From assembly GCA_021730285.1 (NCBI GenBank), contig CP082962.1:2046001-2110000 (forward strand): a DNA stretch of 64,000 nt, given 5' to 3'. The notes under the pieces are model-generated. The model was not told where the DNA came from. It ran no database searches and worked only from the letters and a program-made list of their open reading frames with translations. The translations under genes and the position numbers were made by a program. This DNA is from Desulfovibrio sp. JY (GTDB taxonomy: Bacteria > Desulfobacterota > Desulfovibrionia > Desulfovibrionales > Desulfovibrionaceae). How positions within the stretch are numbered: the first letter of the stretch is position 1; the number at the start of each line of letters is the position of its first letter. This document shows, in pieces, positions 5,434 to 61,710 of the stretch.

Positions 5434-5504
5434 GAAAGTTTTTGGGGAGGGTGGGGGTCCGGGGGAGGGAACCCTTTTTTGAAAAAAAGGGTTCCCTCCC
5501 CCGG
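5434..5504 (-). terminator. Dispersed stop-codon-associated hairpin R1, after htpG
   Basis: A long near-perfect hairpin (5459-5503; stem CCGGGGGAGGGAACCC, A/T-rich apex) is followed on the htpG-sense strand by a C-rich stretch and a CCAAAAACTTTC-type tail. It begins about 22 bases past the htpG stop. The same polarity of stop codon, hairpin, then tail recurs at many genes in the window. A terminator role is inferred from position and structure. There is no classical run of T directly after the stem. Confidence 0.65.
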
Positions 5505-5526
5505 GTGCCTTCCCTTCTTCTCCCCT

Positions 5527-7422
5527 CTACCCCTTCACATGCAACGCGCTGGCGTCGGCGAGGAGGTCGTTGATGCGGGCGACCATCTGGTGCGGGTCGG
5601 ACAGGTAGCCGTCGAGGAGCAGGGCGGAGTCGTAGAGTTGTTCCACGGCCTTGCCGAGAAACGGGTCGGCGTCGTCGTTGCGGTAGATGGCGAGCAGGTT
5701 GCGGATGAGCGCGTGGTCGCGGTTAAGTTCCAGGGCTTTTTTCGGGACCGAGGAGTCCTTGGTGACCATGCGCATGATTTTCTGCATGCTCGAGGTCATG
5801 TGGTCGTCGGGGGAGACCAGGCAGGACGGGCTTTGGGTGAGCCGGGTGGACAGGCGCACTTCGGTGACGCGGTCGCCGAGGAGTTCCTTGATCTTTTTGA
5901 GGAAGTCGTCGAGGGAGCCTTCCTCGTCCTTGGACAGTTCCGGCGTTTCCTTTTTGGGGGCTTCGCCGGCGAAGGCGTCCAGTTCGCCGGCTTCGACCAG
6001 CTCGGCGGATTTGATGGTCAGGTCCTTATAGGTGCGGATGGAGTCCATGATGAACTCGTCCACGGGCTCGTAGAGGTAGAGGACTTCGAGGCCCTTGGCC
6101 CGGAAGATTTCCAGGTGCGGGTTTAAGTCCAGGGCATCGCGGGACGGGCCGGACAGGTAGTAGATGGACTTCTGGCCTTCCTTGGCGCGTTCGACGTAGG
6201 CGGCGAGGGAGGTGTCGTTGTCGTCGCGTGCGATGGCCGAGGAGTCGAAGCGCATGAGTTCGGCGAAGGTTTCGCGGTGGGCGAAGTCGCCGTAGCCGAG
6301 CTTGAGGGCCTGGCCGTGTTCCTTGAAGAAGGTGGCGTACTTGTCCGGGTCTTCCTTGGCTAGGCTTTTGAGCTTGTCGAGGACCTGCTTGACGATGACG
6401 GTCTGGATTTTGCGCAGCACCAGGTTTTCCTGGAGCGTTTCGCGCGAGAGGTTGAGCGGCAGGTCTTCGGTGTCGACCACGCCGCGCACGAAGCCCAGGT
6501 ATTCGGGGATGAGCTCCTTGACCTCCTTGGAGATGAGCACCCGGCGCACGTAGAGGTCGAGGCCGTTGTGCAGGGCGTCGCGGAAGGCCATGGGGCCGAG
6601 TCCCTTGGCCGGGACGAAGAGCAGGGCGGTGAACTGCACCGGCGCGTCGACGCTGATATGGATGGTGGCCAGGGGCTCTTCTTCGTCGTAGGTCAGGAAC
6701 TTGTAGAATTCCTTGTATTGTTCCGGGGTGACGCTGAATTTGGACTCGCGCCACAGGGCGGGCAGGGTGTTGGTCTTTTCGCCGTCGACCAGGACGGGGA
6801 AGGAGATGAAATTGGAGTGCTTGCGCAGGACGTCCTTGACGCGCTGCGGGTCGGCGTACTCCTTGTTTTCCTCGTTCAGTTCGATCTCGATGGTGGTGCC
6901 GCGCGGGACGTCGCCTTCCACGGCCTCGACGGAGAAGCTGCCCGAACCGTCGGAGATCCAGCGGGCCGGGGCGGCATCGGGGGTGAAGGAGCGGGAGGTG
7001 ACGGTGACCTTGTCGGCGACCATGAAGACCGAATAGAAGCCCACGCCGAACCGGCCGATGAGGTTGGACGCGGCATCCTTGTTTTCGGCCACGGACTTCA
7101 TGAAGGCCTCGGTGCCGGATTTGGCGATGGTGCCGAGGTTTTCGACCAGCTCGTTCTGGGTCATGCCGCAGCCGGTGTCGGCGATGGTGAGCTTGCCGCC
7201 TTCCTTGTCCGTGGTGATGCGGATTTCGAGCGGCGCCTCGGCGTCGGCAATGGCGGTTCCCTTGCTTATTTCGAAGCGCAGCTTGTCCAGGGCGTCGGAA
7301 GCGTTGGAGACGAGCTCGCGCAGGAATATTTCCCGATTGGTGTAGATGGAGTGGGTGATGATATCGAGGAGCTTACGGATTTCGGCTTTGAATTCGTGGG
7401 TTTCCCCTGCTGCGGCGGTCAT
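5527..7422 (-). CDS. htpG: Chaperone HtpG (Hsp90 family)
   Basis: 631 residues, the usual bacterial length. The GHKL ATPase domain is at the N-terminus ([19 protein letters not shown], then IADTGCGM and the [12 protein letters not shown]-lid segment). The middle domain ([16 protein letters not shown]) and the C-terminal dimerisation domain follow. It is a cytoplasmic ATP-dependent foldase/holdase. The start has AAGGAGTGACCC before ATG. It stands divergent from the two hsp20 genes, separated by 255 bases, giving a compact heat-shock locus. A hairpin follows the stop. Confidence 0.97.
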
Positions 7423-7613
7423 GGGTCACTCCTTGTTGCGTGGTTTGGCCGGCCGGCGTGCGGCCGCAAAAAAGGCTCGCACCCCTCGGGCGGGTCGGGC
7501 CTGTGGGGGGATGCCCCGTCGGAAATATAAAAAGGGAGATAAGCAGGGGAGGGGACGTGTCAAGGGCGTGGCGTGTGGCGGGGCATGTGTGGCGGGAAAG
7601 TGGGCGCGCCCCA

Positions 7614-7641
7614 TTGACAGGCCGGGGGTGTTGTTTATTTT
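7614..7641 (+). promoter_or_regulatory. Candidate sigma-70-type promoter for the hsp20 pair
   Basis: TTGACA (7614-7619) and TATTTT (7636-7641) are separated by 16 bases, 37 bases before the first hsp20 start. The -35 is perfect and the -10 matches four of six positions. I see no clear sigma-32 or CIRCE element here. Confidence 0.45.
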
Positions 7642-7677
7642 CGGCTGTGAAGCGCAACCTTTGTCGGAGGTGCAGAT

Positions 7678-8091
7678 ATGGTTATTGATCTTGGTCCGTT
7701 TTACGGCGCCAACACGCCATTCGACCGGCTGTTCGAGTCCTTGTGGCCGGCCATGTCCATCAGCCAGCGCAGCGTGGCCTATCCGCCGATCAACATCGGC
7801 GAGGACGACGACAATATTTACGTGCGCTGCGAGATTCCGGGCATGGACATTGCCGATCTCGACCTGACGCTGACCGATTCGAGCCTGGTCATCAAGGGCG
7901 AGCGCAAGGCGGTCAGGGGCAAGTATTACCGCCAGGAGCGGCCCACGGGTTTTTTCCAGCGGGTGGTCAACGTGCAGGCCGCGGTGGCCCGGGAAAAGGT
8001 GACGGCTTCCATGCACGACGGGGTGTTGGAGGTCGTTTTGCCCAAATCGGACGAAAGCAGGCCGAAAAAGATCAGCATCGAGGCCGTGTAA
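7678..8091 (+). CDS. Small heat-shock protein, Hsp20/alpha-crystallin family (first of pair)
   Basis: 137 residues. The alpha-crystallin domain covers about residues 40-137, with VRCEIPGMDIADLDLTL near its start and the conserved GVLEVVLPK near its end. These are ATP-independent holdases that form oligomers in the cytoplasm. The N-terminal 40 residues are the variable arm. Start chosen at ATG after CGGAGG. The C-terminal I-x-I/V-like tail (ISIEAV) is compatible with oligomer packing. Confidence 0.95.
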   Translation: MVIDLGPFYGANTPFDRLFESLWPAMSISQRSVAYPPINIGEDDDNIYVRCEIPGMDIADLDLTLTDSSLVIKGERKAVRGKYYRQERPTGFFQRVVNVQAAVAREKVTASMHDGVLEVVLPKSDESRPKKISIEAV

Positions 8092-8124
8092 GCGCGCCGG
8101 CGCGATTGCCGCAGGAGGACGATC

Positions 8125-8493
8125 ATGACGGAAGGCGGTTTGAAAAACGAGGAGCGCCGGCTGCCCCGGGTGAAGCCGGCCACGGATATCATCGAGAAGG
8201 AAGACGGGTTTTATATTTACGTCGACATGCCGGGCGTGGCCAAGAGCGATCTGGTCATCGACCTCAATGAGGACGAGCTCAAGGTCTCGGGCAAGGCGGA
8301 GTATGTGTTGCCCGAGGGCCAGAAGCTCGGCCATGTGGAGTTCGGCGGGGGCGAGTATTTCCGCAGTTTCACGGTGTCGCACATCGTGGACAAGGAACGG
8401 ATCAAGGCCACGCTTCGGGACGGGGTGCTGGAACTGCATTTGCCGCGTCAGGAAAAGGCCCAGCCCCGTAAAATCCAGATTCAGGCAGGCTAG
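8125..8493 (+). CDS. Small heat-shock protein, Hsp20/alpha-crystallin family (second of pair)
   Basis: 122 residues, 33 bases after the first hsp20 and with its own AGGAGG. It keeps the fold (YVDMPGVAKSDLVIDL; GVLELHLPR) and ends KIQIQAG, an I-x-I motif. The N-terminal arm is shorter than that of its neighbour. Tandem divergent hsp20 genes commonly form mixed oligomers; that is inferred here. A strong intrinsic terminator follows. Confidence 0.94.
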   Translation: MTEGGLKNEERRLPRVKPATDIIEKEDGFYIYVDMPGVAKSDLVIDLNEDELKVSGKAEYVLPEGQKLGHVEFGGGEYFRSFTVSHIVDKERIKATLRDGVLELHLPRQEKAQPRKIQIQAG

Positions 8494-8510
8494 ATGCCGC
8501 ATTGGTATGG

Positions 8511-8546
8511 CCGGGATGCGCAAAACGCATCCCGGTTTTGTTTTTT
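8511..8546 (+). terminator. Intrinsic terminator of the hsp20 operon
   Basis: A perfect stem, CCGGGATGCG-CAAAA-CGCATCCCGG, is followed by TTTTGTTTTTT. It is a textbook Rho-independent terminator 18 bases past the second hsp20 stop. Confidence 0.93.
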
Positions 8547-8556
8547 GTGGGGAAGA

Positions 8557-8760
8557 GAGGATATTTGTTCGAAGTTTCAAAATGAAAAATCAATATTTCA
8601 AAAATGTAATGTTAAGGTAGCCTTCGCTACTGCTTGAGGTTTGTGCTGTGCAGAAAAGGTGTTAGTGACATTTTCGTTCCTTCGTGTTGACAAGAAGGGG
8701 AAAGAGCCGCACTGTCCGTCGCCATTGCGGCATTTCGCAGGAATATCTCAAGGAGATGGT
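8557..8760 (+). promoter_or_regulatory. AT-rich leader of the mucR-family gene
   Basis: The segment 8560-8615 is far more AT-rich than its surroundings and holds near-repeats TTTCAAAATGAAAA and TTTCAAAAATGTAA. A small hairpin GTAGC-CTTC-GCTAC follows at 8617-8630. MucR/Ros proteins bind AT-rich upstream DNA and often repress their own gene, so this is a candidate autoregulatory region. No unambiguous -35/-10 pair was found. Confidence 0.4.
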
Positions 8761-9159
8761 ATGGAAGATTATCTCAAAAGCGCGCTGGAGATCGTCAAGG
8801 CCCAGGCGTCCGTGCGCAACATGACCGACGAAGAGATCACCTCCATGGTCCGTCGGCTGGCCATCGGCATCCGGGACATCAGCGGCGAGGCTCCTGCCGG
8901 CGAAGCGGAACAGACCGTCGGCATGGATCCGAAAAAGGCGATCAAGGAAAAATCCGTCACCTGCCTGGAATGCGGCAAGTCGTTTAAGGTGATCACCAAA
9001 AAGCACCTCGCCTCCCATGGCCTGACCCCGGAAGAGTACAAGGCCAAGCACGGCTACAAGAAGTCCATGCCGCTGGTTTGCAAGTCATTGCAGCGGGATC
9101 GGCGCAAAAAGATGAAGGATATGCGGCTGTGGGAGAAGAAGGGAAAAGTGGTGGCCTAA
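8761..9159 (+). CDS. MucR/Ros-family zinc-finger transcriptional regulator
   Basis: 132 residues. The C-terminal half has the prokaryotic C2H2 finger: Cys68, Cys71, His82, His86, followed by the family signature LTPEEYKAKHGY. The N-terminal 60 residues (DYLKSALEIVKAQASV, then MTDEEITSMVRRL) match the oligomerisation region. The ATG start follows AAGGAGATGGT. Family members are H-NS-like global regulators of AT-rich and surface or motility genes. The HU-family gene comes next, so two chromatin-type proteins are adjacent. Confidence 0.9.
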   Translation: MEDYLKSALEIVKAQASVRNMTDEEITSMVRRLAIGIRDISGEAPAGEAEQTVGMDPKKAIKEKSVTCLECGKSFKVITKKHLASHGLTPEEYKAKHGYKKSMPLVCKSLQRDRRKKMKDMRLWEKKGKVVA

Positions 9160-9288
9160 CGCGGGGCTTTCTGCTATCCGGAAAACCGAATATGGGACTG
9201 GCCGCGCCGGACCTTACCCGCGCCGTCGTTTCCGGGGCGTCGGGTTTGGGCAGTCGCGGCAATCATACGAGAAGGAGATCGCACGCAC

Positions 9289-9564
9289 ATGGCTAAAACT
9301 GACATCATCGCCAAAATCCAGGCCAATGCCGGCATCGCCACCAAGGCCGAGGCGGGCAAGGTTCTTGACGCCGTCCTGGCGGCCATCCAGGATTCCCTGG
9401 CTGCGGGCGAGGCGCTGACCCTGACGGGCTTTGGCACCTTCAAGGTGTCCGAACGGGCGGCGCGTACCGGCCGCGATCCCCGCACCGGAAACGCCATCGA
9501 CATCCCGGCCTCCAAGGCTGTCCGCTTCACCCCGGGCAAGACCCTCAAAGACGCCGTGAAGTAG
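9289..9564 (+). CDS. HU/IHF-family DNA-binding protein
   Basis: 91 residues, typical of HU. It has TKAEAGKVLDAVLAAI, the saddle motif GFGTFKVSERAARTGRDP with the DNA-contacting arm GRDPRTGNAIDIPAS, and FTPGKTLKDAVK at the end. It bends DNA as a dimer in the nucleoid. AAGGAG precedes the start and a strong terminator follows. HU and IHF subunits cannot be told apart with certainty here; the sequence looks HU-like. Confidence 0.95.
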   Translation: MAKTDIIAKIQANAGIATKAEAGKVLDAVLAAIQDSLAAGEALTLTGFGTFKVSERAARTGRDPRTGNAIDIPASKAVRFTPGKTLKDAVK

Positions 9565-9586
9565 TTTTCTTTCGCCCTTTGGGCGC

Positions 9587-9615
9587 AAGGCCGCGGGAAA
9601 CCGCGGCCTTTTTTT
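9587..9615 (+). terminator. Intrinsic terminator of the HU gene
   Basis: The stem AAGGCCGCGG-GAAA-CCGCGGCCTT is followed by TTTTT, 22 bases past the HU stop. Confidence 0.93.
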
Positions 9616-9638
9616 ATGGGAAACGGGCGCGTCGTCCG

Positions 9639-10091
9639 TTACAGCGGCGCCCAGCCGAGCAGCGAAAATCCCGTTTCCGGGTCCTTGGACCGGGCCAGAT
9701 CCGTGCCCAGGATCTCGATCACCACCACCTCGAAAATCTTCCACACCTCGAGCCCCGGCCGCACGCAGCCGGCCCGCGTCTCCTCGCCGCGCCCGAGCAC
9801 GCCGTGCATGTGCAGCATCGGCTTGCCACCGATGGCGGAGGGAAAAAGCGTGCCCACGGCCGCGGCCTCGTGCACGCGGGAAATGGCCGCGAACATGGTC
9901 GTCGGCGGCATGACCGTGCCATCCTCCGGCCCGACCACCAGCTTGCCCTTTTCCAGCCCGCCAAGGGCCAGCACCACGGCCGAGGTCACTTCCCGCTCGG
10001 CGGCGAACGCTTCGATGGCGTCCGGAATGCGGTCGCCGTCGCCGAGGCGCAACACGAACACGCGGCCGATGTGGCCTTCGGATACGATCAT
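9639..10091 (-). CDS. PPC/DUF296-domain protein
   Basis: 150 residues forming a single PPC (DUF296) domain: FVLRLGDGDRIPDAIEAFA at the start, SAVVLALGGLEKGKL, then LHMHGVLGR near 93-101, where the histidines are the usual metal ligands. Plant relatives are AT-hook proteins, while bacterial stand-alone members have no proven function. The gene faces the HU gene convergently, and its stop lies 24 bases from the HU terminator, which could serve both strands. I see no regulatory partner. Confidence 0.82.
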   Translation of the reverse strand: MIVSEGHIGRVFVLRLGDGDRIPDAIEAFAAEREVTSAVVLALGGLEKGKLVVGPEDGTVMPPTTMFAAISRVHEAAAVGTLFPSAIGGKPMLHMHGVLGRGEETRAGCVRPGLEVWKIFEVVVIEILGTDLARSKDPETGFSLLGWAPL

Positions 10092-10430
10092 GCCATCCTC
10101 TCCGTTTTTTTTCTGGTTACCAAAGCGCCGGGCAAGACAACAGGCCAGGCCGCGCCAGGGGCGTCGCGCCGTCGGCGCGTTCGCCGTGGCGGCTTGCGGC
10201 CAGGCGGGACAGGGGTTCCCGTCGCGGTGGGCTTGGTGCGTGTCGCCCGGGCCGCCGCGATGTGGGAGGGCCGAAAGGCGTCGGAAAATGTCCCGGTGGG
10301 GGCGGTCATGGCGTCACGGGCGTGCGACGCGCTCCGTCGACAGCCCCCACCCGGCGGACATCCGCGCGCATCGCCAGGGACCGCGCGGGATTATGCGGAA
10401 AAAGCCGCGCCAGACGGCGCGGCATGGATC
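10092..10430. other. Intergenic stretch without a recognisable gene
   Basis: GC-rich DNA between the PPC-domain gene and the terminator region of rubredoxin. Short open frames on both strands have no good ribosome site and no protein-like composition. Nothing specific is seen apart from scattered short inverted repeats. Confidence 0.5.
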
Positions 10431-10441
10431 AGCCCGTGTCG

Positions 10442-10528
10442 TGCCCTCGAAAGGCGCGCAAACAAATTTCGAGGGCAACACGCTTGAATGTTCGTTTTTT
10501 GAAAAATACCGACGTATTTTTCAAAAAT
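10442..10528 (-). terminator. Double hairpin downstream of rubredoxin
   Basis: Two hairpins lie in tandem just past the rubredoxin stop: a near-perfect AT-rich one (10495-10528, left arm TTTTTTGAAAAATAC) and an 11-bp perfect one (TGCCCTCGAAA at 10442-10452 with 10467-10477). A comparable AT-rich palindrome follows the response-regulator gene at 43758-43862. A terminator function is likely. Confidence 0.7.
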
Positions 10529-10535
10529 CTCGGCA

Positions 10536-13162: not shown

Positions 13163-13263
13163 ATATCCGGGCGCACATCCCTGCCGCTGACCTCGCCGGT
13201 TTCTCTCCGATCCCTTTCGAACCCCGGGAAAGTCTTTCCCCTGGTCTCCCCATACAACACCGT

Positions 13264-13328
13264 TAAAAGATTTAGGAAGGGGAGAGCGCGAGAGGGGAGA
13301 ACCCTTTTCAAAGGGTTTCCCCTCTCGC
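13264..13328 (-). terminator. Dispersed stop-codon-associated hairpin R2, after the tetrahaem cytochrome gene
   Basis: GCGAGAGGGG...CCCCTCTCGC stem with an ACCCTTTTCAAAGGGT-type apex, 22 bases past the cytochrome stop. Near-identical copies lie at 56131-56195 and 61648-61710, and a close relative at 49325-49389. Confidence 0.7.
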
Positions 13329-13350
13329 ACTGTTTTCTCTCTCCAATCAC

Positions 13351-21385: not shown

Positions 21386-21456
21386 CCGGGGGAGGGGACC
21401 CTTTTTTGCAAAAAAGGGTCCCCTCCCCCGGACCCCCACCCTCCCAAAAAACTCTT
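21386..21456 (+). terminator. Dispersed stop-codon-associated hairpin R3, after the DUF2065 gene
   Basis: Perfect CCGGGGGAGGGGACCC...GGGTCCCCTCCCCCGG stem with a TTTTTTGCAAAAAA apex (21386-21431), then C-rich DNA and CCCAAAAAACTC. It starts 16 bases past the stop. Confidence 0.75.
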
Positions 21457-21527
21457 TATAGGGTCGGTGGCGGAAGAACTTCGATGATCTTGTCCCAATC
21501 GTTTTCCTGCCTGCAACGATACCCGTT

Positions 21528-21595
21528 GAAAGTTTTTGAAGGGGGTCCAGGGGGAAACTTTTTCCAAAAAGTTTCCCCCTGGCCGCCGGAGGCAT
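21528..21595 (-). terminator. Dispersed stop-codon-associated hairpin R4, after menG
   Basis: Read from the menG stop it gives ATGCCTCCGGCGGCCAGG, a perfect GGGGGAAACTTTTT hairpin, CCTGGACCCCC, then the AAAAACTTTC tail. This is nearly identical to copies at 26535, 32682 and 42664. Confidence 0.75.
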
Positions 21596-21620
21596 TCTTC
21601 CTTCTTTCTCCCGTCCCTGC

Positions 21621-22340
21621 TTACTCCGCCTTGACCCCGGCGTGCACGAACACGATGCCTCCGGTCATGGCCCGGTAGGACACCTCGGCGAATCCCGCCT
21701 GGCGCATCTGTTCGGCCAGGGCCGCTTCGTCCGGGAATTCGCGGATCGTTTCGGCGAGGTACAGGTAGGCCTCGTCGTCGCCGGAGATCAGTTTGCCGAT
21801 TTTCGGCAGCACCCGGCGCAGATAGAAATTGTAGCAGCCGCCCCACAGCCGGCGTTTGCCCGTGCCGAATTCCAGCACCATGAGCCGCCCGCCGGGCCGC
21901 AGCACCCGGGCCAGTTCCCGGAAGGCGTTCTCCCGGGGGCGGATGTTGCGGATGCCGAACGCGATGGTCGCCCCGGCCACGGACGCGTCCGGAAGCGGCA
22001 GGGCCAGGCCGTCGCCGAGCACCGGATGGATGCGGCGGCCAAGGTGCGGCGGAATCTTGGTCTTCCCCCGCACGAGCATGGGCAGGCAGGGGTCCACGGC
22101 CACGACCTGCCGGTCGCACTGTCCGGCCAGCATGATGGAGACGTCGAGGGTGCCGGCGGCCAGATCCAGGACCGGCCCGGCCGGCAGGCCCGGGGCGGCG
22201 AGCGCCCGCACCATGGCCCGTCTCCAGGCGATGTCGCAGCCGGCCGAGAGCAGGTGGTTGAGCAGGTCGTAGGAGCCGGCCACGCGGCCGAACATGCCGG
22301 CCACGCGCCGCGCGTCGCCGGGCGTTGGCAGATCAGCCAT
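21621..22340 (-). CDS. menG: Demethylmenaquinone methyltransferase (UbiE/MenG family)
   Basis: 239 residues. The class I SAM-binding motif LDLAAGTLDVS is near 58; GIRNIRPRENAFRELARVLRPGGRLMVLEF is characteristic of UbiE/COQ5/MenG, as is the N-terminal FGRVAGSYDLLNHLLS. It performs the last C-methylation of menaquinone. With mqnB, mqnD and the polyprenyl synthase about 2 kb away, the window holds several late pathway steps. Its start overlaps the stop of the small gene upstream by eight bases. Confidence 0.93.
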   Translation of the reverse strand: MADLPTPGDARRVAGMFGRVAGSYDLLNHLLSAGCDIAWRRAMVRALAAPGLPAGPVLDLAAGTLDVSIMLAGQCDRQVVAVDPCLPMLVRGKTKIPPHLGRRIHPVLGDGLALPLPDASVAGATIAFGIRNIRPRENAFRELARVLRPGGRLMVLEFGTGKRRLWGGCYNFYLRRVLPKIGKLISGDDEAYLYLAETIREFPDEAALAEQMRQAGFAEVSYRAMTGGIVFVHAGVKAE

Positions 22341-26534: not shown

Positions 26535-26603
26535 GATGCCTCCGGCGGCCAGGGGGAAACTTTTTGAAAAAAGTTTCCCCCTGGACCCCCTCCAAAAACT
26601 TTC
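26535..26603 (+). terminator. Dispersed stop-codon-associated hairpin R5, after the octahaem gene
   Basis: ATGCCTCCGGCGGCCAGG, then a perfect GGGGGAAACTTTTT hairpin, CCTGGACCCCC, and the CCAAAAACTTTC tail, starting 22 bases past the stop. Confidence 0.75.
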
Positions 26604-26647
26604 AACGGGAAGTGGGGGGGGCGAGGAGAAAGGGAAGAGGAAATTCT

Positions 26648-31487: not shown

Positions 31488-31513
31488 GGTGGTGATGATG
31501 ATGGTTGCGGATT

Positions 31514-31583
31514 GTGGGGAGGGAGGCCCCTTTTTGAAAAAAAGGGGCCTCCCTCCCCACACCCCTCCCTCCCCCAAAAACTT
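31514..31583 (+). repeat. Dispersed hairpin R6, upstream of the SPOUT methyltransferase
   Basis: GTGGGGAGGGAGGCCCC...GGGGCCTCCCTCCCCAC perfect stem (31514-31560) with a T/A apex, then CCCCCAAAAACTTC. It belongs to the same family but does not follow a plus-strand stop, so it is one of two positional exceptions. Confidence 0.7.
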
Positions 31584-31624
31584 CTCATGGGGGCGATTCG
31601 TTAAAATTCGCGGTGCGATACCTT

Positions 31625-31716
31625 TCGCCCCGAAGGGGCGACGGCTGGTGGTGGCTGGATTTTGCCCGACGCGCCTGCCGCGAAGCGGCGGCATCGTCGG
31701 ACGAAATCCAGCCACC
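31625..31716. repeat. Composite cruciform element (copy B)
   Basis: Hairpin TCGCCCC-GAA-GGGGCGA (31625-31641) is followed by a 13-bp perfect inverted repeat (GGTGGCTGGATTT, 31650-31662 with 31704-31716). That repeat encloses CCGAC/GTCGG and an apical hairpin GCCGC-GAA-GCGGC (31677-31689). It is the mirror-orientation counterpart of the element at 5280-5370, with unrelated outer-arm sequence but the same architecture. Confidence 0.7.
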
Positions 31717-31813
31717 ATCTTCCAGGGCTCAGACCCTTCGCAAGCCAGCCACGCCTCCCGCCGGCCAGAGCGAATCGGGGGGACCGGGGGGCGCGCCCGC
31801 CCCCCGGCGGTGA

Positions 31814-32530: not shown

Positions 32531-32681
32531 CTGGCCACGCGCCCCTTGCCGGGAGCAATGCTTCTCCCGGGGTGTCCGGTATGGTCAGCCTGGCGCACAA
32601 ACAACAATTTTTGCCCTATCAATCCGAAAGATAAGGACTTCTCCCCAATACCGTATCGGGTCGTCCCCGATGCCCCCTATC

Positions 32682-32749
32682 GAAAGTTTTTGAAGGGGGT
32701 CCAGGGGGAAACTTTTTTCAAAAAGTTTCCCCCTGGCCGCCGGAGGCAT
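32682..32749 (-). terminator. Dispersed stop-codon-associated hairpin R7, after the RdgC N-half gene
   Basis: Same sequence type as R4 and R5 (ATGCCTCCGGCGGCCAGG, GGGGGAAACTTTTT stem, AAAAACTTTC tail on the minus strand), 17 bases past the stop at 32767. Confidence 0.75.
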
Positions 32750-42300: not shown

Positions 42301-42506
42301 CGCTCGGCACGGGTTCGGGAGCGGAACTGCGCCGGCCGCTCGGCATCGCTATCGCCGGCGGACTGCTCGTCAGCCAGGCCATGACGCTCTACACCACGCC
42401 GGTTATTTATTTGTATCTGGACAGGTTACGGTGCTGGGGGAGGGGGCCCCTTTTTGCAAAAAGGGGTCCCCTCCCCCAGACCCCCTCCCTCCCCAAAAAC
42501 TCTTAA
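39381..42506 (+). CDS. RND multidrug efflux pump subunit (MdtC-like) with hairpin-encoded C-terminus
   Basis: 1041 residues with Asp401-Asp402 in [18 protein letters not shown] and [14 protein letters not shown] in the second half. A glycine-rich loop ([10 protein letters not shown]) lies in the second periplasmic region. The usual end [12 protein letters not shown] is reached near residue 1016. The frame then continues through hairpin R8, adding about 23 residues (including [14 protein letters not shown]) before the stop in its tail. These residues look like translated repeat rather than selected protein. The operon shows no outer-membrane factor gene in this window. Confidence 0.93.
42435..42503 (+). 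terminator. Dispersed hairpin R8, inside the 3' end of the MdtC-like gene
   Basis: The stem TGGGGGAGGGGGCCCC/GGGGTCCCCTCCCCCA has one mismatch and a TTTTTGCAAAAA apex (42435-42478). C-rich DNA and CCCAAAAACTC follow. The mdtC-like stop codon lies at its distal edge. Confidence 0.72.
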
Positions 42507-42525
42507 CGGGGTTGGGGTCTTCTAT

Positions 42526-42618
42526 GCGGCGCTTCGCCGCTGGCGCGTTTGTGGCCGCAATCGCGTCCGGCGTCGCGGCGCAGAGCGCCGCGTGTCGCCG
42601 GGCCGATTGCGGCCACAA
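42526..42618. repeat. Composite hairpin element (possible copy C)
   Basis: Hairpin GCGGCG-CTT-CGCCGC (42526-42540) precedes a perfect 15-bp inverted repeat (TTGTGGCCGCAATCG, 42549-42563 with 42604-42618). That repeat encloses CCGGCG/CGCCGG and CGCGGCGC-AGA-GCGCCGCG. It is related in layout to copies A and B, though the order of hairpin and arms differs. Confidence 0.6.
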
Positions 42619-42663
42619 CTCCGGTATCCCGCCAACCCTACGCCTTCCCAGTCCCCCACCCCG

Positions 42664-42733
42664 TCAAAAGTTTTGGAAAGGGGTCCAGGGGGAAACTTTT
42701 TTCAAAAAGTTTCCCCCTGGCCGCCGGAGGCAT
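42664..42733 (-). terminator. Dispersed hairpin R9, overlapping the end of the RlmM-like gene
   Basis: Same sequence type as R4, R5 and R7, in minus-strand polarity. The stop of the RlmM-like gene (42702-42704) lies within the stem region. Confidence 0.75.
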
Positions 42734-43757: not shown

Positions 43758-43862
43758 GTGTGGCGTTCTCTAAAAAATATGACAATATTTTTTAGAGAAA
43801 AAATAATTATCAAAATATATTATTCCCAAAATTCGTATGCACGAATTTCGAGAACGCGACAC
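43758..43862 (-). terminator. AT-rich cruciform after the response-regulator phosphatase gene
   Basis: The outer arms (GTGTGGCGTTCTC, 43758-43770, against 43850-43862; 12 of 13 pair) enclose two inner hairpins: TTCTCTAAAAAATAT with a GACA loop (43766-43799) and AAATTCGT-ATGC-ACGAATTT (43829-43848). The distal arm includes the stop codon of the gene. Likely terminator, unusually AT-rich for this genome. Confidence 0.65.
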
Positions 43863-49300: not shown

Positions 49301-49324
49301 GTTTGGGGGAAGAGGGAAGAGTGT

Positions 49325-49389
49325 GCGAGAGGGGAACCCTTTTTGAAAAAAGGGTTCCCCTCTCGCGCTCTCCCTTCCCAAAAACTTTC
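49325..49389 (+). terminator. Dispersed stop-codon-associated hairpin R10, after the phosphofructokinase gene
   Basis: GCGAGAGGGGAACCC...GGGTTCCCCTCTCGC stem with a T/A apex, then CTTCCCAAAAACTTTC, 24 bases past the stop. Confidence 0.75.
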
Positions 49390-49430
49390 GACGGTTACAG
49401 ACGCTGTGACGGTAATGATCTGTAACTATT

Positions 49431-49490
49431 AAAAGTCTTTTGGAGGGGGGTCCGGGGGGAACCTTTTCTTCAGAAAAGGTTCCCCCCGGG
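49431..49490 (-). terminator. Dispersed stop-codon-associated hairpin R11, after the shikimate kinase gene
   Basis: CCGGGGGGAACCTTTTC/GAAAAGGTTCCCCCCGG stem, 33 bases past the shikimate kinase stop, in minus-strand polarity. It faces R10 across about 40 bases, so each convergent gene has its own copy. Confidence 0.72.
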
Positions 49491-49523
49491 AAGTCTCTTT
49501 CCTTTCCCTCTCTCCCCTATCCC

Positions 49524-56026: not shown

Positions 56027-56034
56027 AGATGGAA

Positions 56035-56100
56035 CTGGGGGAAAACCTTTCTTGCAGAAAGGTTCTTCCCCCAGACCCCCTTTCCAAAGATTTTCAAAGG
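56035..56100 (+). terminator. Dispersed stop-codon-associated hairpin R12, after the chemoreceptor gene
   Basis: CTGGGGGAAAACCTTTC/GAAAGGTTCTTCCCCCAG stem (one mismatch, 56035-56074), then CCCCCTTTCCAAAGATTTTC. It begins eight bases past the stop. Confidence 0.7.
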
Positions 56101-56130
56101 GGTGCTTTGTCGGCGTAATACCCTGACAGT

Positions 56131-56195
56131 TAAGAAATTTAGGAAGGGGAGAGCGCGAGAGGGGAGAACCCTTTTTAAAGGGTTTCCCCTCTCGC
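56131..56195. repeat. Dispersed hairpin R13, in the leader of the aminotransferase gene
   Basis: Nearly identical to R2 and R14 (GCGAGAGGGGAGAACCC stem at 56155-56195). It lies 26 bases before a plus-strand start and in minus-strand polarity without a minus-strand gene to terminate. It is the second positional exception and may sit in the 5' untranslated region. Confidence 0.7.
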
Positions 56196-56221: not shown

Positions 56222-57346
56222 ATGGATCAGGCCCGATTGCGCGAGGAGTTTCCGGTTGTGGCCGAAGCGGTCTATTTCAACCATGCGGCCGTTTCGCCTC
56301 TGCCCGGGCGCGCCTGCGCCGCCGGACAGGCCGTGTACGAGGACAGATGGCGGCGGGGCTCGGCCGATTATTTTCGCTGGCAGGCGGCCGTGGCCGCGGC
56401 CAGGGACGGGGCGGCGCGGCTCCTTGGGACCACGCCCGACCGGGTGGCCTTTACCGGCAACACCTCCCACGGCCTGTCGCTCGTGGCCGCCGGCATCGAC
56501 TGGCGGCCGGGGGACAAGGTGGCCGTGACCTGGCCGGATTTCCCCACCGTTCGTTTTCCCTTCGATAATCTGGCCGGTCGCGGCGTGACCGTGGTGGAGC
56601 TGCCCAAGCACGACGGCCGCCTGGACATGGACGCGGCGCGAAGGCTCATTCCCGGCTGCCGGCTGGTGGCGGCTGCGACGGTGGACTGGACCACGGGCGT
56701 GCGTCTTCCGGCGGAGCCGCTTGGGGCGCTTTGCCGGGAGGCCGGGGCGCTGTATTGCCTGGACGCCATCCAGAGCCTGGGGGCGCTGCCCACGGACGTG
56801 ACCGGGCTGGGCGTGGATTTCCTGGCCGCCGGCTGCCACAAATGGCAACTCGGGCCCATGGGGCTCGGCATCTTCTACGTGGCGCCGCAGGCCGATGCCG
56901 CCCTCGGTACGGTCATGGCCGGCTGGCGCTCCATGCGCGACGCCGAGGAACTCGGCATGACCTTTCGCTTGAAGGACGGGGCCGGCCGTTTCGAGGCCGG
57001 GACCCAGGACATCGCCGGCATCGCCGCGTATGGCGCATCGCTTGCCCTGTTCGAGGAGATCGGCCGGGAAGAGGTCGCCCGCCGCATTTTCGCCATCGTC
57101 GACATCCTGGCCGCCGGGCTCGCCGCGCGGGGGCTGCCCGTGGTCTCGCCCCTGACGCCGGAGGAGCGCTCGGGCATCATCGCCTTTGGCCATCCCGACG
57201 CCCCGGGCCTGTACAAGGCGCTTATGGCCGCGAACGTGGCCGTGTCGTTGCGCGACGGACGCATTCGCCTGTCGCCGCACTGCTACAACGACGCAACGGA
57301 TGCCGAGCGCTTTTTCGCCAGGCTCGACGCCTTTGACGGACGCTGA
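56222..57346 (+). CDS. Class V PLP-dependent aminotransferase/cysteine desulfurase-like enzyme
   Basis: 374 residues. VYFNHAAVSPLPGRA at the N-terminus, TVDWTTGVRLP, DAIQSLGALP with the PLP-contacting aspartate, and the Schiff-base lysine Lys207 in AAGCHKWQLGPMG. No catalytic cysteine loop of a true desulfurase is evident, so an aminotransferase or lyase role is more likely. The start ATG follows AAGGAGACTTC. A hairpin lies just upstream. Confidence 0.88.
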   Translation: MDQARLREEFPVVAEAVYFNHAAVSPLPGRACAAGQAVYEDRWRRGSADYFRWQAAVAAARDGAARLLGTTPDRVAFTGNTSHGLSLVAAGIDWRPGDKVAVTWPDFPTVRFPFDNLAGRGVTVVELPKHDGRLDMDAARRLIPGCRLVAAATVDWTTGVRLPAEPLGALCREAGALYCLDAIQSLGALPTDVTGLGVDFLAAGCHKWQLGPMGLGIFYVAPQADAALGTVMAGWRSMRDAEELGMTFRLKDGAGRFEAGTQDIAGIAAYGASLALFEEIGREEVARRIFAIVDILAAGLAARGLPVVSPLTPEERSGIIAFGHPDAPGLYKALMAANVAVSLRDGRIRLSPHCYNDATDAERFFARLDAFDGR

Positions 57347-57411
57347 GCACAGTTCCTGCGGGAGTTCGACGCCGCGGTGGAGGCCGTGGAGCCATGCCTG
57401 GGATGATCGCC

Positions 57412-57449
57412 AGGCCCGCACCATGATCGAATACGATCAATGCGGGCCT
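57412..57449. terminator. Bidirectional hairpin between convergent genes
   Basis: AGGCCCGCA (57412-57420) pairs with TGCGGGCCT (57441-57449), enclosing GATCG/CGATC. It sits between the aminotransferase stop and the small minus-strand gene. A second short palindrome, CTAGTCGACTAG, spans the stop of that gene (57483-57494). No T run follows. Confidence 0.5.
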
Positions 57450-57482
57450 GACCTTCCCCCCATTTTCGCAATGCGCGCTCTT

Positions 57483-57761
57483 CTAGTCGACTAGAGCATA
57501 AATGAAGATCCGCATCTGTGCGTCTTTTACAGGATGGATGGTCAAGATCACGACGTGCTTGCTGTCGCCTGTTCCGGGCCTCACGTTAAGGCCTTCGAAA
57601 TGCCCGAAGTCCTGGGGGTGTCCAATCGGGTTGAACCAGCACGCTTTTACAGGCCGGCTTCCAAAATCGATAAGGAACTCCTGGCTTTTGCCAACGGGCA
57701 CGACATAGTTGCCCTCGCCTGACCCGCCGGCGACGACGACATTTTTCGTGATGATTTCCAT
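57483..57761 (-). CDS. Small hypothetical protein preceded by an AT-rich region
   Basis: 92 residues starting MEIITKNVVVAGGSGEGNY after AAGGAGAGACATT. The sequence looks beta-rich (QEFLIDFGSRPVKACWFN, KHVVILTIHPVKDAQMRIFIYALVD). No family is recognised. Upstream is the most AT-rich stretch of the window (about 57838-57950), which suggests a recently acquired gene or a strong promoter region. Confidence 0.65.
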   Translation of the reverse strand: MEIITKNVVVAGGSGEGNYVVPVGKSQEFLIDFGSRPVKACWFNPIGHPQDFGHFEGLNVRPGTGDSKHVVILTIHPVKDAQMRIFIYALVD

Positions 57762-58361
57762 AATGTCTCTCCTTGCTGCGTGGGTTGCGGTTTGCATGAG
57801 GCGCCAGGTAGGGGGAATACCGGGCGAGACGAACGAATAATTCCTATTCTATATATAAGTATTATTATATGCAATATATTATTTTCCCCGTCGTATTTCT
57901 TGATTTTCGCTGGAATCGTAGACGTTTTATATAAAAGGCGATCGTAGAAGATGCTTGTCGCGCCCGCCGGGGCACCCGGACGGCAAAGTCCAGCGACCCT
58001 ACTCGAGGGCGCAGGCCGCCCCATCGGGCGCATGAAGTGAGCCTGATCGTCAGGCGACGCGCGGAGATGTGCAAGCGCAGGCGGATGCTCCGCCCGGGGG
58101 ATCAGGCCATGGAACCCGGGATGCGGGGGTTGGACCCGGGAGGTCGGCCGGAGCGTCCCGTTTCGCGCTGGCGCGGCGCAAGACGACGGCGCGCCAGCCG
58201 ATGCGGACGCGACGGTGACAGGGCAGATCCCGGCCCGTCTGTTCGAGGACTTCTTGGAGGAAGAAGTTTGCTTTTCAACTGGTCAGGCAGGAACGCCCGG
58301 AAGGGGAGGGTATCCCTTCCGGGCGACGAAAACGGCTGAGCCGACGCTCTTTCGCGAACGC
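57762..58361. other. Gene-free region with AT-rich island and a GC hairpin
   Basis: Bases 57838-57950 are strongly AT-rich (for example CTATATATAAGTATTATTAT), unlike the rest of the window. The remainder is GC-rich with no protein-like open frame. A perfect 12-bp hairpin, CGCCCGGAAGGG (58294-58305 with 58314-58325), lies 37 bases past the stop of the SLOG-like gene and may be its terminator. Confidence 0.55.
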
Positions 58362-58913
58362 CTAGCCGAACGAGCGGGTGAACAGGTCGGCGATGGCCGC
58401 CTTGCCGGATTCTTCGAGAAACCGGGTGCCGGTGCCGGTGAAATGGGTCTGGGTGATGGTCGGCGCGGCCACCGGGGCCCAGGTGTCGCTCTTCCAGGTG
58501 AACCAGCCGGCCTTTTGCTGGCAGAAGACGAAAAGCGGCTTGTTGCAGATCTTGGCGAATTCCGCGCCCCAGCCTGTGCCGCCCTTGACCGTGCCGTCCT
58601 CCTGGATGCTCCCCACCACGAAAATCTCCAGGCCGGCGTCGACCTGATGCATGATGGTGCGCAGGACCATGCGGATCTGCGGGCCGTTGGAAAATTTGCG
58701 CGCCAGAAGTTTGGACACGTAGGTGAGGCTCACGTCCTTCTTGGCCAGTTCCTCCTGGGTCAGGACGCGGATGCCGCGGGTGCGTTCGATGCGGTGCCCT
58801 TCGAACGTGTAGGTGACTTCCTGGACGCCGTGGCTTTCGGCCTGGCGGCCGAACTCGGCCTCGGCGCCCTGGGCGCCGCCGCTGAAAAGCGTGAAGTTGG
58901 TGGCCTTGGGCAT
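58362..58913 (-). CDS. SLOG-like nucleotide-binding-fold protein
   Basis: 183 residues. FTLFSGGAQGAEAEFGRQAESHG near the N-terminus has the SGGA-x-GA-E loop of YpsA/SLOG-type Rossmannoid domains. Later, VKGGTGWGAEFAKICNKPLFVFCQ supplies the second nucleotide-binding loop (GGTGWGAE). Such domains bind nucleotides or nucleotide-derived signals; some act in effector or defence systems. The start is fixed by AAGGAGTCCCC. No effector domain or partner is fused. The family call rests on these motifs only. Confidence 0.6.
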   Translation of the reverse strand: MPKATNFTLFSGGAQGAEAEFGRQAESHGVQEVTYTFEGHRIERTRGIRVLTQEELAKKDVSLTYVSKLLARKFSNGPQIRMVLRTIMHQVDAGLEIFVVGSIQEDGTVKGGTGWGAEFAKICNKPLFVFCQQKAGWFTWKSDTWAPVAAPTITQTHFTGTGTRFLEESGKAAIADLFTRSFG

Positions 58914-59100
58914 GGGGACTCCTTGGCAGTGTGGTTCCTGTGGCGAGGCAGCGCCGACGCAAGCCGCCCATTTCCGGGCATTGTGCACGTTTTGGCCGGG
59001 CCGCGCAAGAAAAGGACGCGGTTTCCCGCGCCCCGGCCCGAACCTTCGCGTCCCGGCGGCCCGGGCGGTCGCGCCAGCCGGGCCGAAACGGGAAAGAACG

Positions 59101-60633
59101 TTATTCCAACCGCATACGGGTCATGGACGTCTTGAGGTCCGAGGCCAGATGGGCCAGGCTCGTCACGGCGTCGGACGTCTGGGTCATGGACCCGGCGGTA
59201 TCCTCGGCGATGCGGTTGATGTGGTCGGTGGAGCGGTTGATTTCCTCGGAGGTGGCGGACTGCTGTTCGGCGGCTGTGGCGATGCCGCGCACCTGATCCG
59301 AGGTTTTTTCCACGAAATTGAGGATCTGGTGCAGGGCGTCGCCGGCTTCGTGGGCCAGGTTGTCGGCGTCCTCGATGCCCTGGGTGGTCTCGTCGGTGGC
59401 GGACATGTTGCGCCGGGCGCTTTCCTGGATGGCCCGGATGTAGTTGCTCACCTCTTTGGTGGCGGTCATGGTCTTTTCGGCGAGCTTGCGCACCTCGTCG
59501 GCCACCACCGCGAATCCCCGTCCGGCCTCGCCGGCCCGGGCCGCTTCGATGGCGGCATTGAGCGCCAGCAGGTTGGTCTGATCGGCGATATCGGAGATGA
59601 CCTGCATGATCTGGCCGATGCCCTGGGCCTGGCCGCCAAGATCCTGCATTTCGGATTTGAGCCCGGCCGCCTTGACGTTGACCGACTCCATGACGCTTAT
59701 GACCTTGGCCACGAGGTCCGCGCCGGTGGTGGCCATGGCATTGGCCTTGCTGGCCGTCGCGGCGGCGTCCCCGGCGTTTCTGGCCACCTCGAGGATCGTG
59801 GCGTTCATCTCTTCGATGGCCGTGGCCACTTCGGCCGTTCGGGAGCGCTGCTCCTCCATGCCTTCGGTGGACTGGGAAATATGGCTGGTCATCTGCTCGG
59901 CCGCGTCGGCCAGGGACTCGGCCACGGCCGTGGCTTCGGACACGCCCTGGGCGATGCGGTGGTTTTGCTCGGTGATGGTGCGTTCCTTGAGCACCACGCC
60001 CGTGAAGTCGGCCACGGACACGAAGCCGCCGATGAGGTTGTCGTCGAAGTCCAGGATAGGGGTGGAGAAGATGCTGATGTATTTGCGGTTGCCCTTGTGG
60101 GTGTCGAATTCCGTCTTGGAACTCTGGCGGGAGCGTTCGCGGATGGCCTTGTCGGCTATGGTCTCGCGCTCCTCGTTGTAGAAGAAGCGGGAGAAGCTCT
60201 TACCGACGTGGCTTTCCGGCGTGCCGTCGTTTTCCGTCAGGCGCACCATGTGCTGGTTGACCCATTTGATCTTGCCATCTTCCCCGACGATGGCCATGGG
60301 CGTGATGATGTTGCCGAGCATGGCTTCGTCCTTGCTCAGGCGTTCCTTGATGGCCTTTTCATGGGGCAGGATGGATTCGCGCAGGGCATCGGCGCGGAGC
60401 AGGGGGTCGTCTTCCAGTATGCAGTCGAAGGTGGCGGAGGCGACCGAGGCGAACATGCGGGTGATACAGGTAAACATCGTTTCCAGGCGTCCCTGGGCCC
60501 ACAGCAGGAAGCCCGAGACGAGGACGAAGGCAAGCCCCAGGAGACAATAGGAAAGGATACCGCCGGCCAGGGCGCTTGCCACAAGGAGGACGGCGTTGGC
60601 GATAAGGACGGCGAACAGCAACGGACGTTTCAT
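59101..60633 (-). CDS. Methyl-accepting chemotaxis protein with cytoplasmic PAS domain
   Basis: 510 residues. Two closely spaced N-terminal hydrophobic segments (about 4-22 and 25-43) leave almost no periplasmic domain. A PAS domain follows (about 100-205; [22 protein letters not shown], then [23 protein letters not shown]), then the signalling domain ([36 protein letters not shown]). It probably senses an internal or membrane redox or metabolic signal. Start after GGGAGGCATC. No che genes nearby. Confidence 0.92.
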
Positions 60634-60746
60634 GATGCCTCCCGGGAAAAAATGGACAAACATCCGTGGCAGCGGACACGTCGGCCGTAACGTATAATCA
60701 CCCGAACCGCAATAATAAGGGCGCAATTGTAACAGCGCGGACGCGT

Positions 60747-60971
60747 TCAGTAGACGAGGCAGGCGTCCTTGGCGGCGCGTTCCAGGAACAGGCGCACGAG
60801 CGGCGCGGCCATAGGCCGGGCGTCGCCCGGGGCGAAGGCGTCCCGGGGGGCATCCGGTTTGCCGTTCCAGTCGGAAAAGCGCAGCTCCACCACGTTTTCC
60901 CCGGTCTGGCCGGGCAGGACGGCGTCGGACAGGCAGGTCGGGACAAGCCAGGGCTCAGGCCGGCGATGCAT
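60747..60971 (-). CDS. Small hypothetical protein overlapping the fmdE-like gene
   Basis: 74 residues starting [16 protein letters not shown], whose ATG overlaps the last codons of the FmdE-family gene by 17 bases. The sequence [19 protein letters not shown] and [18 protein letters not shown] looks protein-like. GAGGGG lies ten bases upstream. No family is recognised. Co-translation with the FmdE-like gene is likely. Confidence 0.55.
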
Positions 60972-61521
60972 AATAACAGCGCCCCTCGAAGCAGGGCCGG
61001 CAGAGCGTCTCCCCGCCGGAGACAATCTCGCGCCCGTCGAGGACCGATTCACCGCAGCGCGCGCACAGGCAGGCCCGCACCGGCCGGCCGGGCAGGTCCT
61101 CGGGGCGCAGGGGCACGGCAACCGGGGTCAGGCGGAAAAGCGCCTCGTCGGGGATCGTGGCGAGAAGCGCCGGATCGGCGTCCTTGTCCGGGCCGTCCTC
61201 GCGCGCGGCCACGCGCACGGCGGCCCCGGTGCGCAGGTTGACGAAGGTGGCCGCCATCTTGCCGTAATCGAGCACCTTCATGGTGCGCTTGCCGGGCCGG
61301 CAGCCGGTCAGGGCCATGATGGCGTCCGTGGCGCAGCGGTCGATTTCCACGAACACGATCAAATCCTTGCGGTCCGCGCCCTTGGGGTCGGTGATGCCGA
61401 TTTCCCGCAGGCCGGCCATGGTCATGCGGGTGCCGATCCGGATGCCCCGGCAGACGTCGCCGTGAAAGCGGCCCGCCTCTTCGAGCAGACGGGCGTAGGT
61501 CTCGGATTGCGTTGTATCCAT
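60955..61521 (-). CDS. FmdE-family protein with C-terminal zinc ribbon
   Basis: 188 residues. The FmdE core shows FHGDVCRGIRIGTRMTMAGLREIG, VEIDRCATDAIMALTGCRPGKRTMKVLDYGKMAATFVN; the C-terminus has a zinc-ribbon-like C-x2-C...C-x2-C (CARCGESVLDG, LCRPC). FmdE-like proteins occur with molybdenum/tungsten enzymes in many anaerobes that lack methanofuran, where they may handle cofactor or metal. The AOR fragment in this window is far away. Start after GGAGGAAGCGGC. Confidence 0.87.
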   Translation of the reverse strand: MDTTQSETYARLLEEAGRFHGDVCRGIRIGTRMTMAGLREIGITDPKGADRKDLIVFVEIDRCATDAIMALTGCRPGKRTMKVLDYGKMAATFVNLRTGAAVRVAAREDGPDKDADPALLATIPDEALFRLTPVAVPLRPEDLPGRPVRACLCARCGESVLDGREIVSGGETLCRPCFEGRCYYASPA

Positions 61522-61647
61522 GCCGCTTCCTCCCTTGGCGCGTCTTGTCCCAGGGGCGCGGGAAAAAAGCAATCCATCACGGGTGGTTGTAAAATCGTGT
61601 GCCTTGCGTCACGCTCTTCGGCCTCTTCCCAACGTGGATTTCCGGTA

Positions 61648-61710
61648 AAAAGTTTCGGAAGGGGAGAGCGCGAGAGGGGAGAACCCTTTTCAAAGGGTTT
61701 CCCCTCTCGC
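61648..61710 (-). terminator. Dispersed stop-codon-associated hairpin R14, after asdA
   Basis: GCGAGAGGGGAGAACCC...GGGTTTCCCCTCTCGC stem (61670-61710) with AAAAAGTTTC at the distal end, ten bases past the asdA stop. Nearly identical to R2 and R13. Confidence 0.75.

What the first reader, a model, noticed from the sequence alone, without database searches (positions are those of the whole stretch)
5434..61710. A dispersed hairpin family sits just after stop codons, always in one orientation
At least 14 copies occur (R1 5434, R2 13264, R3 21386, R4 21528, R5 26535, R6 31514, R7 32682, R8 42435, R9 42664, R10 49325, R11 49431, R12 56035, R13 56131, R14 61648), plus relatives at 5137 and 31814. 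Each has a GC stem with a mostly T-then-A apex and a CCAAAAACTTTC-like tail. In 12 of the 14, reading along the gene gives stop codon, hairpin, then tail, with the hairpin starting about 10-35 bases past the stop or overlapping it (R8, R9). The stems fall into sequence subtypes, yet both arms always match, so changes have been compensated. This is far denser and more ordered than ordinary REP sequences. A lineage-specific terminator or mRNA 3'-end element that spreads by copying is a reasonable hypothesis.
Basis: partly seen in the sequence, partly recalled or inferred. Interest (0 to 1): 0.72.

Follow-up and report, generated by a model that had tools for sequence, protein, structure and literature searches.

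The report
Triplex-like hairpins at bacterial gene ends
A sulfate-reducing bacterium carries roughly 550 copies of a DNA hairpin placed just after the ends of genes, and the sequence beside each hairpin tends to change in step with its stem, as a third DNA strand lying in the stem's groove would, so it may be a naturally selected triple helix that marks where genes end.

Summary
The genus is Solidesulfovibrio. Of 104 copies with both neighbours, 75 have the hairpin within 45 nt of a facing stop codon (random placement 5.9%); none lies between divergent genes. Part of the orientation follows from a larger design: 68 of 108 copies form 34 pairs, every one tail-to-tail.

The "tail" is the mirror image of the stem's 3' arm and covaries with it, between subtypes (z=10) and within them (z=5.3; one of four subtypes shows none), in a sister species and in another genus. 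On the antisense strand the tail reads as a third strand that mostly obeys DNA-triplex rules. In kind this is an intrastrand-triplex repeat like E. coli BoxC/PIT/TM elements, but of another class, with a strand-switching upper half and a gene-end bias those lack.

Best guess: a U-tract-less, two-way transcription-unit boundary; at orthologous gene ends such hairpins and ordinary terminators alternate. Termination and triplex formation are untested.

The parts
5428..5504 (-). R1, type A hairpin (5459-5504) and tail, 22 nt after the htpG (HSP90) stop
13260..13330 (-). R2, type G hairpin with a bulged stem, and tail; about 20 nt after the stop of a multihaem cytochrome gene
21386..21462 (+). R3, type A hairpin and tail; pairs tail-to-tail with R4; ortholog shows a joint stem and tail change
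21521..21582 (-). R4, type B hairpin and tail, 38 nt after the ubiE-like stop
26549..26610 (+). R5, type B hairpin and tail, preceded by GCCTCCGGCGG, 35 nt after a cytochrome gene
31513..31591 (+). R6, type A-like hairpin and tail; exception, faces the start of a SpoU methylase gene
32675..32736 (-). R7, type B hairpin and tail, 30 nt after a stop
42434..42510 (+). R8, type A-like hairpin and tail, overlapping the last codons of an AcrB-type gene; pairs with R9
42659..42720 (-). R9, type B hairpin and tail, overlapping the end of an FtsJ-like gene
49325..49394 (+). R10, type G hairpin and tail, 24 nt after the phosphofructokinase stop; pairs with R11
49426..49489 (-). R11, type C hairpin and tail, 34 nt after the shikimate kinase stop
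56035..56101 (+). R12, type C hairpin and tail, about 9 nt after an MCP gene; pairs with R13
56127..56195 (-). R13, type G hairpin and tail; exception, faces the start of an aminotransferase gene
61642..61710 (-). R14, type G hairpin and tail, about 10 nt after an aminotransferase stop
49318..49495 (.). R10/R11 composite: hairpin, central stem made by tail and tail', hairpin
   Evidence: DNA fold z=-11.7, RNA fold z=-11.0
31649..31717 (.). long hairpin in the middle of the R6 composite; similar long hairpins follow several type A copies (5274-5344 beside R1)

Best explanation
A dispersed family of composite DNA elements that mark the ends of transcription units. SHOWN from sequence: each half is a hairpin of about 16-24 base pairs, usually within 45 nt of a stop codon, followed by a C-rich tail that mirrors the stem's 3' arm; many halves join tail to tail in preferred type combinations, and their tails can pair with each other. 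INFERRED: the mirror is kept by selection because on the strand opposite to the mRNA the purine-rich tail lies in the major groove of its own hairpin as a third strand. In the lower stem it runs antiparallel to the G/A arm (G.GC, A.AT or T.AT); in the upper stem it switches strand and runs parallel (a block of G.GC, then T.AT). INFERRED: when transcription or supercoiling opens the element, hairpin and triplex together stop or release RNA polymerase coming from either side, doing the work of a terminator without a U-tract.
For: Mirror covariation of tail and stem: 38 arm types, z=10.0, 0 of 20,000 permutations as high; within subtypes z=5.3, 0 of 5,000, other relations at most 2.5; G011 z=7.0 and G018, another genus, z=6.4. 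Third-strand tally in 58 arm/tail combinations: lower G-C with tail C 329 of 347, A-T with T 130 or A 16 of 154, middle C-G with C 111 of 116, upper T-A with A 268 of 288, upper C-G with G 16 of 16, gap cells left out. R3 against its ortholog: a T-A to C-G pair change together with tail A to C. Placement: 75 of 104 within 45 nt of a facing stop, null 5.9%, 0 of 104 divergent. Orthologous ends of htpG and pfk carry either such hairpins or T-tract hairpins, differing by gene and genome (read by eye).
Against: No RNA or structural data. Subtype C shows no mirror covariation within itself. Third strand looser than the stem: R1 and L282_7899 changed arms with no tail change. In G018 upper G-C pairs stand opposite tail A in 7 of 7 lettered cells and A-T opposite C in 9 of 90, which are not standard triplets. 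In pairs tail and tail' also pair with each other, which competes with the triplex. No T-tract. The tests for mutual exclusion with canonical terminators were negative or powerless. E. coli PIT elements showed no terminator activity (PMC4666352, passage).
Confidence: 0.45

Rival explanations
1. A non-autonomous mobile palindromic repeat (BIME- or MITE-like), copied in the past by an enzyme acting on its folded single strand and tolerated where it does little harm, past stop codons and away from promoters. The fold would be the enzyme's recognition signal; there is no use to the host.
For: Hundreds of near-identical copies; fixed tail-to-tail pairing of set types, C with G in 23 of 34 pairs, shuffled mean 10.6; uneven spread in the genus. 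Convergent gaps with elements (21, median 200 bp) are about one composite plus 40 bp, so short distances to stops could in part come from insertion into short gaps; convergent gaps without elements: 29, median 74 bp.
Against: No Y1 transposase in G000; where the family exists in relatives (4 of 6 genomes) no element profile hit lies in the 4 loci held. In tandem gaps the stop side stays close while the start side varies. 14 of 14 window copies shared with G011. Stem and tail kept matching after copying.
Confidence: 0.3
2. Ordinary RNA hairpins at mRNA 3' ends (U-tract-less terminators or decay barriers). The tail's likeness to the stem comes from something other than a triplex, for example shared composition or common descent of each subtype.
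For: Strong hairpins right after stops; RNA fold z=-11.0 for R10/R11; PMC8355165 (abstract and section 13 read) reports that poly-U is not needed at many inferred bacterial termination hairpins.
Against: Mirror covariation also within subtypes and in G018; shuffled own tails and other elements' tails fit the stem worse (runs 9.4 own, 7.3 other, 4.8 shuffled).
Confidence: 0.17
3. The triplex forms in the sense RNA or sense DNA strand, with the C-rich tail as a pyrimidine third strand, for example to protect mRNA 3' ends.
For: The order purine arm, pyrimidine arm, pyrimidine tail has the right polarity for a pyrimidine-motif third strand (sequence).
Against: Runs of five C would need protonation; the middle C block of the tail faces C-G pairs with no standard triplet on that strand, and A opposite A-T (16 of 154 cells) is allowed only in the antisense reading (motif rules from PMC4666352, passages).
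Confidence: 0.05
4. The G-rich antisense strand forms a G-quadruplex, and G-run symmetry gives the mirror.
For: Type A copies have four or more runs of three G on the antisense strand (read); PMC4666352 section 17 notes the same ambiguity for E. coli elements.
Against: Types B and C have too few G-runs (read), and a quadruplex does not ask for matching GA or TTCTT details.
Confidence: 0.03

Closest known systems
E. coli BoxC / PIT / TM_ECO intrastrand triplex elements (PMC4666352: abstract, passages and sections 15-18 read; the earlier Hoyne and Maher studies known only through it)
   Same: Dispersed intergenic hairpin with an adjacent third strand of mirror sequence; two types found as inverted pairs, always one of each type in the five E. 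coli cases.
   Different: E. coli elements are class II (third strand 3' of the purine arm); here, on the antisense strand, the third strand is 5' of the purine arm (class I) in the lower half and continues past a strand switch. E. coli: 23 copies in MG1655, no orientation bias, more often upstream than downstream of genes; here about 550 copies at stop codons. The E. coli consensus is absent from the 292 loci held.
REP / BIME palindromic repeats
   Same: Hundreds of intergenic palindromes in inverted pairs.
   Different: No Y1 (RAYT-type) gene in this genome; mirror tail.
Intrinsic transcription terminators
   Same: Hairpin soon after stop codons, frequent between convergent genes, at the same place as T-tract hairpins in orthologs.
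   Different: 0 of 65 have four T among the first 8 nt after the stem; the tail is C-rich there.
H-DNA mirror repeats and alternate-strand triplexes (recalled; PMC4807104 abstract and outline seen)
   Same: Mirror symmetry; purine-motif and parallel segments in one third strand.
   Different: Here the duplex is itself a hairpin on the same strand, in a natural repeat family.

Membership tests
Intrastrand triplex repeats (PIT/TM kind) | Hairpin plus adjacent same-strand third segment of mirror sequence | tested here: met
   Mirror run of 7 or more beside 66 of 265 hairpins in G000; identity control 4, reverse 2, reverse complement 29; permutation tests
Intrastrand triplex repeats (PIT/TM kind) | Multicopy and intergenic | tested here: met
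   108 profile hits in 864 kb, intergenic or overlapping gene ends
Intrastrand triplex repeats (PIT/TM kind) | Folds as a triplex (CD, NMR, probing) | not testable with these tools
   no experiment
TM_ECO / BoxC family itself | Consensus given in PMC4666352 section 16 | tested here: not met
   0 of 292 loci match exactly
REP / BIME | RAYT (Y1 transposase) in the genome | tested here: not met
   0 of 1 own genome, control genomes ring
REP / BIME | Inverted pairs of distinct types | tested here: met
   34 pairs, all tail-to-tail, C with G in 23
REP / BIME | Conserved tetranucleotide beside the palindrome (recalled) | not tested
   no call
Canonical intrinsic terminator | T-tract right after the stem | tested here: not met
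   0 of 65
Canonical intrinsic terminator | Location just downstream of stop codons | tested here: met
   75 of 104 within 45 nt
Canonical intrinsic terminator | Mutually exclusive with another terminator at the same gene end | tested here: inconclusive
   7 of 44 against 45 of 203, p=0.42; 0 of 68 against 24 of 136, but the contrast vanishes once element footprints are masked
Any Rfam family | Match above a curated gathering score | tested here: not met
   0 matches in the window against 4227 families

The most novel reading that the evidence does not exclude
Covariation of a third strand shows that a natural intramolecular DNA triple helix, with a strand switch in mid-stem, is held by selection, and that a bacterial lineage uses it in place of U-tract terminators as a two-way boundary at hundreds of gene ends.
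Probability: 0.25. Interest if true: 0.9.

Novelty: new variant of a known kind. Interest (0 to 1): 0.7.

Why it matters
What natural DNA triplexes do in cells is open: the E. coli elements had no detectable effect on expression (PMC4666352). Here a family of hundreds of copies varies in sequence while keeping the third-strand relation, sits at a set place relative to genes, and recurs in two genera, so both questions (does the triplex form, does it end transcription) become testable with plain reporters and short oligonucleotides. If the boundary role holds, gene-end prediction in these sulfate reducers should look for such hairpins and not only for U-tracts.

Tried and rejected
RAYT mobilisation: Y1_Tnp searched in G000 (none) and in six genomes (4 of 6 have it; no profile hit in the 4 loci held). 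Known RNA family: none in the window. Mis-called genes as the cause of start-facing copies: the 14 cases of the first finder have plausible called genes and no well-scoring sense ORF ending there; one was checked by Pfam (SpoU methylase).

Exclusion between elements and canonical terminators: no effect (p=0.42 each); the contrast (0 of 68 against 24 of 136, p=4e-5) is a footprint artefact by the masking control. Rule-based sorting of 52 orthologous ends at five genes: mirrored only 15, canonical only 9, both 3, neither 25. I read the 3 'both' calls as T-runs inside the element or composite; dropping them gives Fisher p=0.02, a post hoc step. The rule misses ends that I class by eye (L230 and L227 at htpG; L252 and L249 at the cytochrome gene; L239 and L242 at ubiE), so the ortholog alternation rests largely on my reading.

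G-quadruplex: see rivals. My first hairpin finder needed gap-free stems and missed bulged copies (65 against 108 by profile); the G000 covariation tests use the 65. Rows dropped before them: L109_2649 (unrelated) and six set aside by the G-count and apex filter, of which L019_11838 is a true copy. A few tails are mis-parsed in the block table. The G011 and G018 samples were fetched around hits of one query copy, so they are not random. More ortholog pairs: a 191 kb block gave 8 spanning alignments of 23 copies, mostly because the matching DNA was not held. The upstream flank is purine-rich (74%); I saw no covariation there but ran no test.

Literature: searches listed nothing on such repeats in Desulfovibrio or Solidesulfovibrio; one search found PMC4666352, whose main text has no 'desulfovibrio'. 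Its supplement and the ITxF database were not seen, so these sequences may be listed there.
Full report
The window lies in a single-contig 4.69 Mb genome; the window is 66% GC.

Checking the observation. All 14 hairpins exist where stated. I called genes with a codon model of my own, fetched 40 systematic 20 kb stretches and listed hairpins with tails. A profile from 61 aligned copies finds 14 hits in the window, exactly R1-R14, and 94 in the 800 kb, about 550 per genome. Of 108 copies 104 have both neighbours: 78 face a stop, 75 of these within -30..+45 nt, where random placement gives 5.9%; 26 face a start, each in a tandem gap, 10 of them within 45 nt; none is in a divergent gap, against 23% expected. 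The G011 and G018 samples, fetched around hits, show the same: 36 of 41 and 24 of 36 face a stop, with 2 of 36 in divergent gaps in G018.

Composite design. 68 of the 108 copies form 34 pairs, 34 of 34 tail to tail, with no head-to-head or same-direction neighbours within 150 nt. Pairs prefer set types: C with G in 23 of 34, shuffled mean 10.6 and maximum 18 (types by simple patterns). A tail-to-tail pair in a convergent gap must have both hairpins toward stops, and in a tandem gap one toward the stop and one toward the start; so for pairs the orientation is geometry, and the facts that count are no divergent gaps and short distances to stops. Single copies, free of this, face stops 28 to 10. 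R10/R11 folds as hairpin, central stem of tail with tail', hairpin (DNA z=-11.7, RNA z=-11.0). Downstream matches to the reversed complement of the tail exceed shuffles in 57 of 68 paired and 11 of 40 single copies. Several type A copies have a further long hairpin beyond the tail; in G018 many have a second hairpin between tail and tail'.

The tail mirrors the stem. Reading, tails follow their own 5' arm as its complement in the same direction, that is, the 3' arm backwards. Permuting tails among 38 arm types: own 9.36, permuted 7.03, z=10.0, none of 20,000 as high; identity, reverse complement and reverse give -2.1, 4.2 and 5.8. Within subtypes z=5.3, carried by A (0 of 5,000), B (2) and G (52) but not C (2,779); the other relations reach at most 2.5. 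G011 gives z=7.0 and G018 z=6.4. Hairpins with a mirror run of 7 or more beside them: G000 66 of 265, G011 32 of 87, G018 37 of 190, five Solidesulfovibrio pfk loci 1 of 31, other pfk loci 3 of 170; identity controls 4, 2, 7, 0, 2; reverse 2, 4, 9, 0, 1; reverse complement 29, 9, 5, 3, 6.

What the mirror means. Watson-Crick pairing cannot couple mirror images; a third strand in the major groove can. I tallied tail bases against stem pairs in 58 combinations of G000 (gap cells left out). Lower stem: G-C with tail C 329 of 347; A-T with tail T 130, A 16, C 8 of 154. Middle: C-G with tail C 111 of 116. Upper stem: T-A with A 268 of 288; C-G with G 16 of 16. On the sense strand this would need runs of protonated C and has no triplet for the middle. 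On the antisense strand it reads as purine motif (G.GC, A.AT, T.AT) against the 5' arm, then a parallel G.GC block and a T.AT block against the 3' arm, with a C needing protonation only at isolated upper sites. PMC4807104 (abstract and outline seen) reports that parallel G.GC and T.AT tolerate a single junction but are destabilised by interruptions, which suits one block of each. The purine-motif rules are those printed in PMC4666352. The aligner rewarded plain complementarity only, so A at A-T and C at C-G are not its product. G018 departs in two ways: upper G-C pairs with tail A (7 of 7) and A-T with C in 9 of 90.

Orthologs. G011 is syntenic at about 92% and shares 14 of 14 window copies. 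Arms changed on both sides with pairing kept in R1, R3, R11 and L282_7899. In R3 a T-A to C-G change goes with tail A to C; its other pair change left the tail as it was. R1 and L282_7899 changed arms without the tail, R11 gained a tail C. The third strand is thus looser than the stem.

Function. At htpG, by eye, G000, G011, G009, G003, G001 and G010 carry mirrored hairpins after the stop, and G007, G004, G008, G013, G012 and G006 T-tract hairpins. At pfk, G000, G011, G010, G006 and G004 have the first, G003, G007 and G013 the second, and G001, G009, G008 and G012 are unclear. At the cytochrome gene G000, G011 and G010 have the first, G003 and G009 the second, the rest neither or unclear; at ubiE G000, G007, G008, G006, G013 and probably G012 (cut by a contig end) have the first and I saw no T-tract hairpin. 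Which gene has which differs by genome, so replacement seems to have happened more than once. This fits a shared job at transcript ends, but the statistical tests of exclusion failed or lacked power. PMC8355165 (abstract and section 13 read) argues that U-tracts are not needed at many bacterial 3' ends. Against a terminator, E. coli PIT elements had no terminator activity (PMC4666352), though they also lack the gene-end bias seen here.

Verdict. Real, non-random, and in kind an intrastrand-triplex repeat of class I in its lower half, with a strand-switching extension and a gene-end placement that PMC4666352 does not report for the E. coli family. The triplex and the boundary role remain inferences.

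Noticed in passing
window 43766-43799; L019 19849-19882: A second, unrelated palindrome (TTCTCTAAAAAATAT, 4-nt loop) occurs in the same sequence at two distant places.
   Followed up: no
window 5274-5344 and 31649-31717; similar in L021, L117, L120: A long repeated hairpin (GGCGGCATTTGCCGGGACG-like) lies beyond the tail of several type A copies, so these composites are larger than the pair alone.
   Followed up: partly
window 21582-21626 and 42511-42660 against G011 contigs C33 and C28: G011 has about 1.6 kb more DNA right beside R4 and about 0.9 kb more between R8 and R9: two of the alignment breaks fall at elements, in line with the genomic instability that PMC4666352 ties to triplex repeats.
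   Followed up: no
window 42434-42506: R8 supplies the last codons of an AcrB-type gene, beyond residue 1013 where its Pfam match ends (1041 aa), so an element seems to have taken over a coding end.
   Followed up: partly
L093 4219-4317 (a record titled Xanthobacteraceae): Two C-run/G-run hairpins with a following G-rich mirror strand, the E. coli-like arrangement, 52 nt apart.
   Followed up: no
L173-L192 (genome G018, another genus of the family): G018 elements carry a second hairpin, often ending TTTTCGC/GCGAAAA, between tail and tail'.
   Followed up: partly
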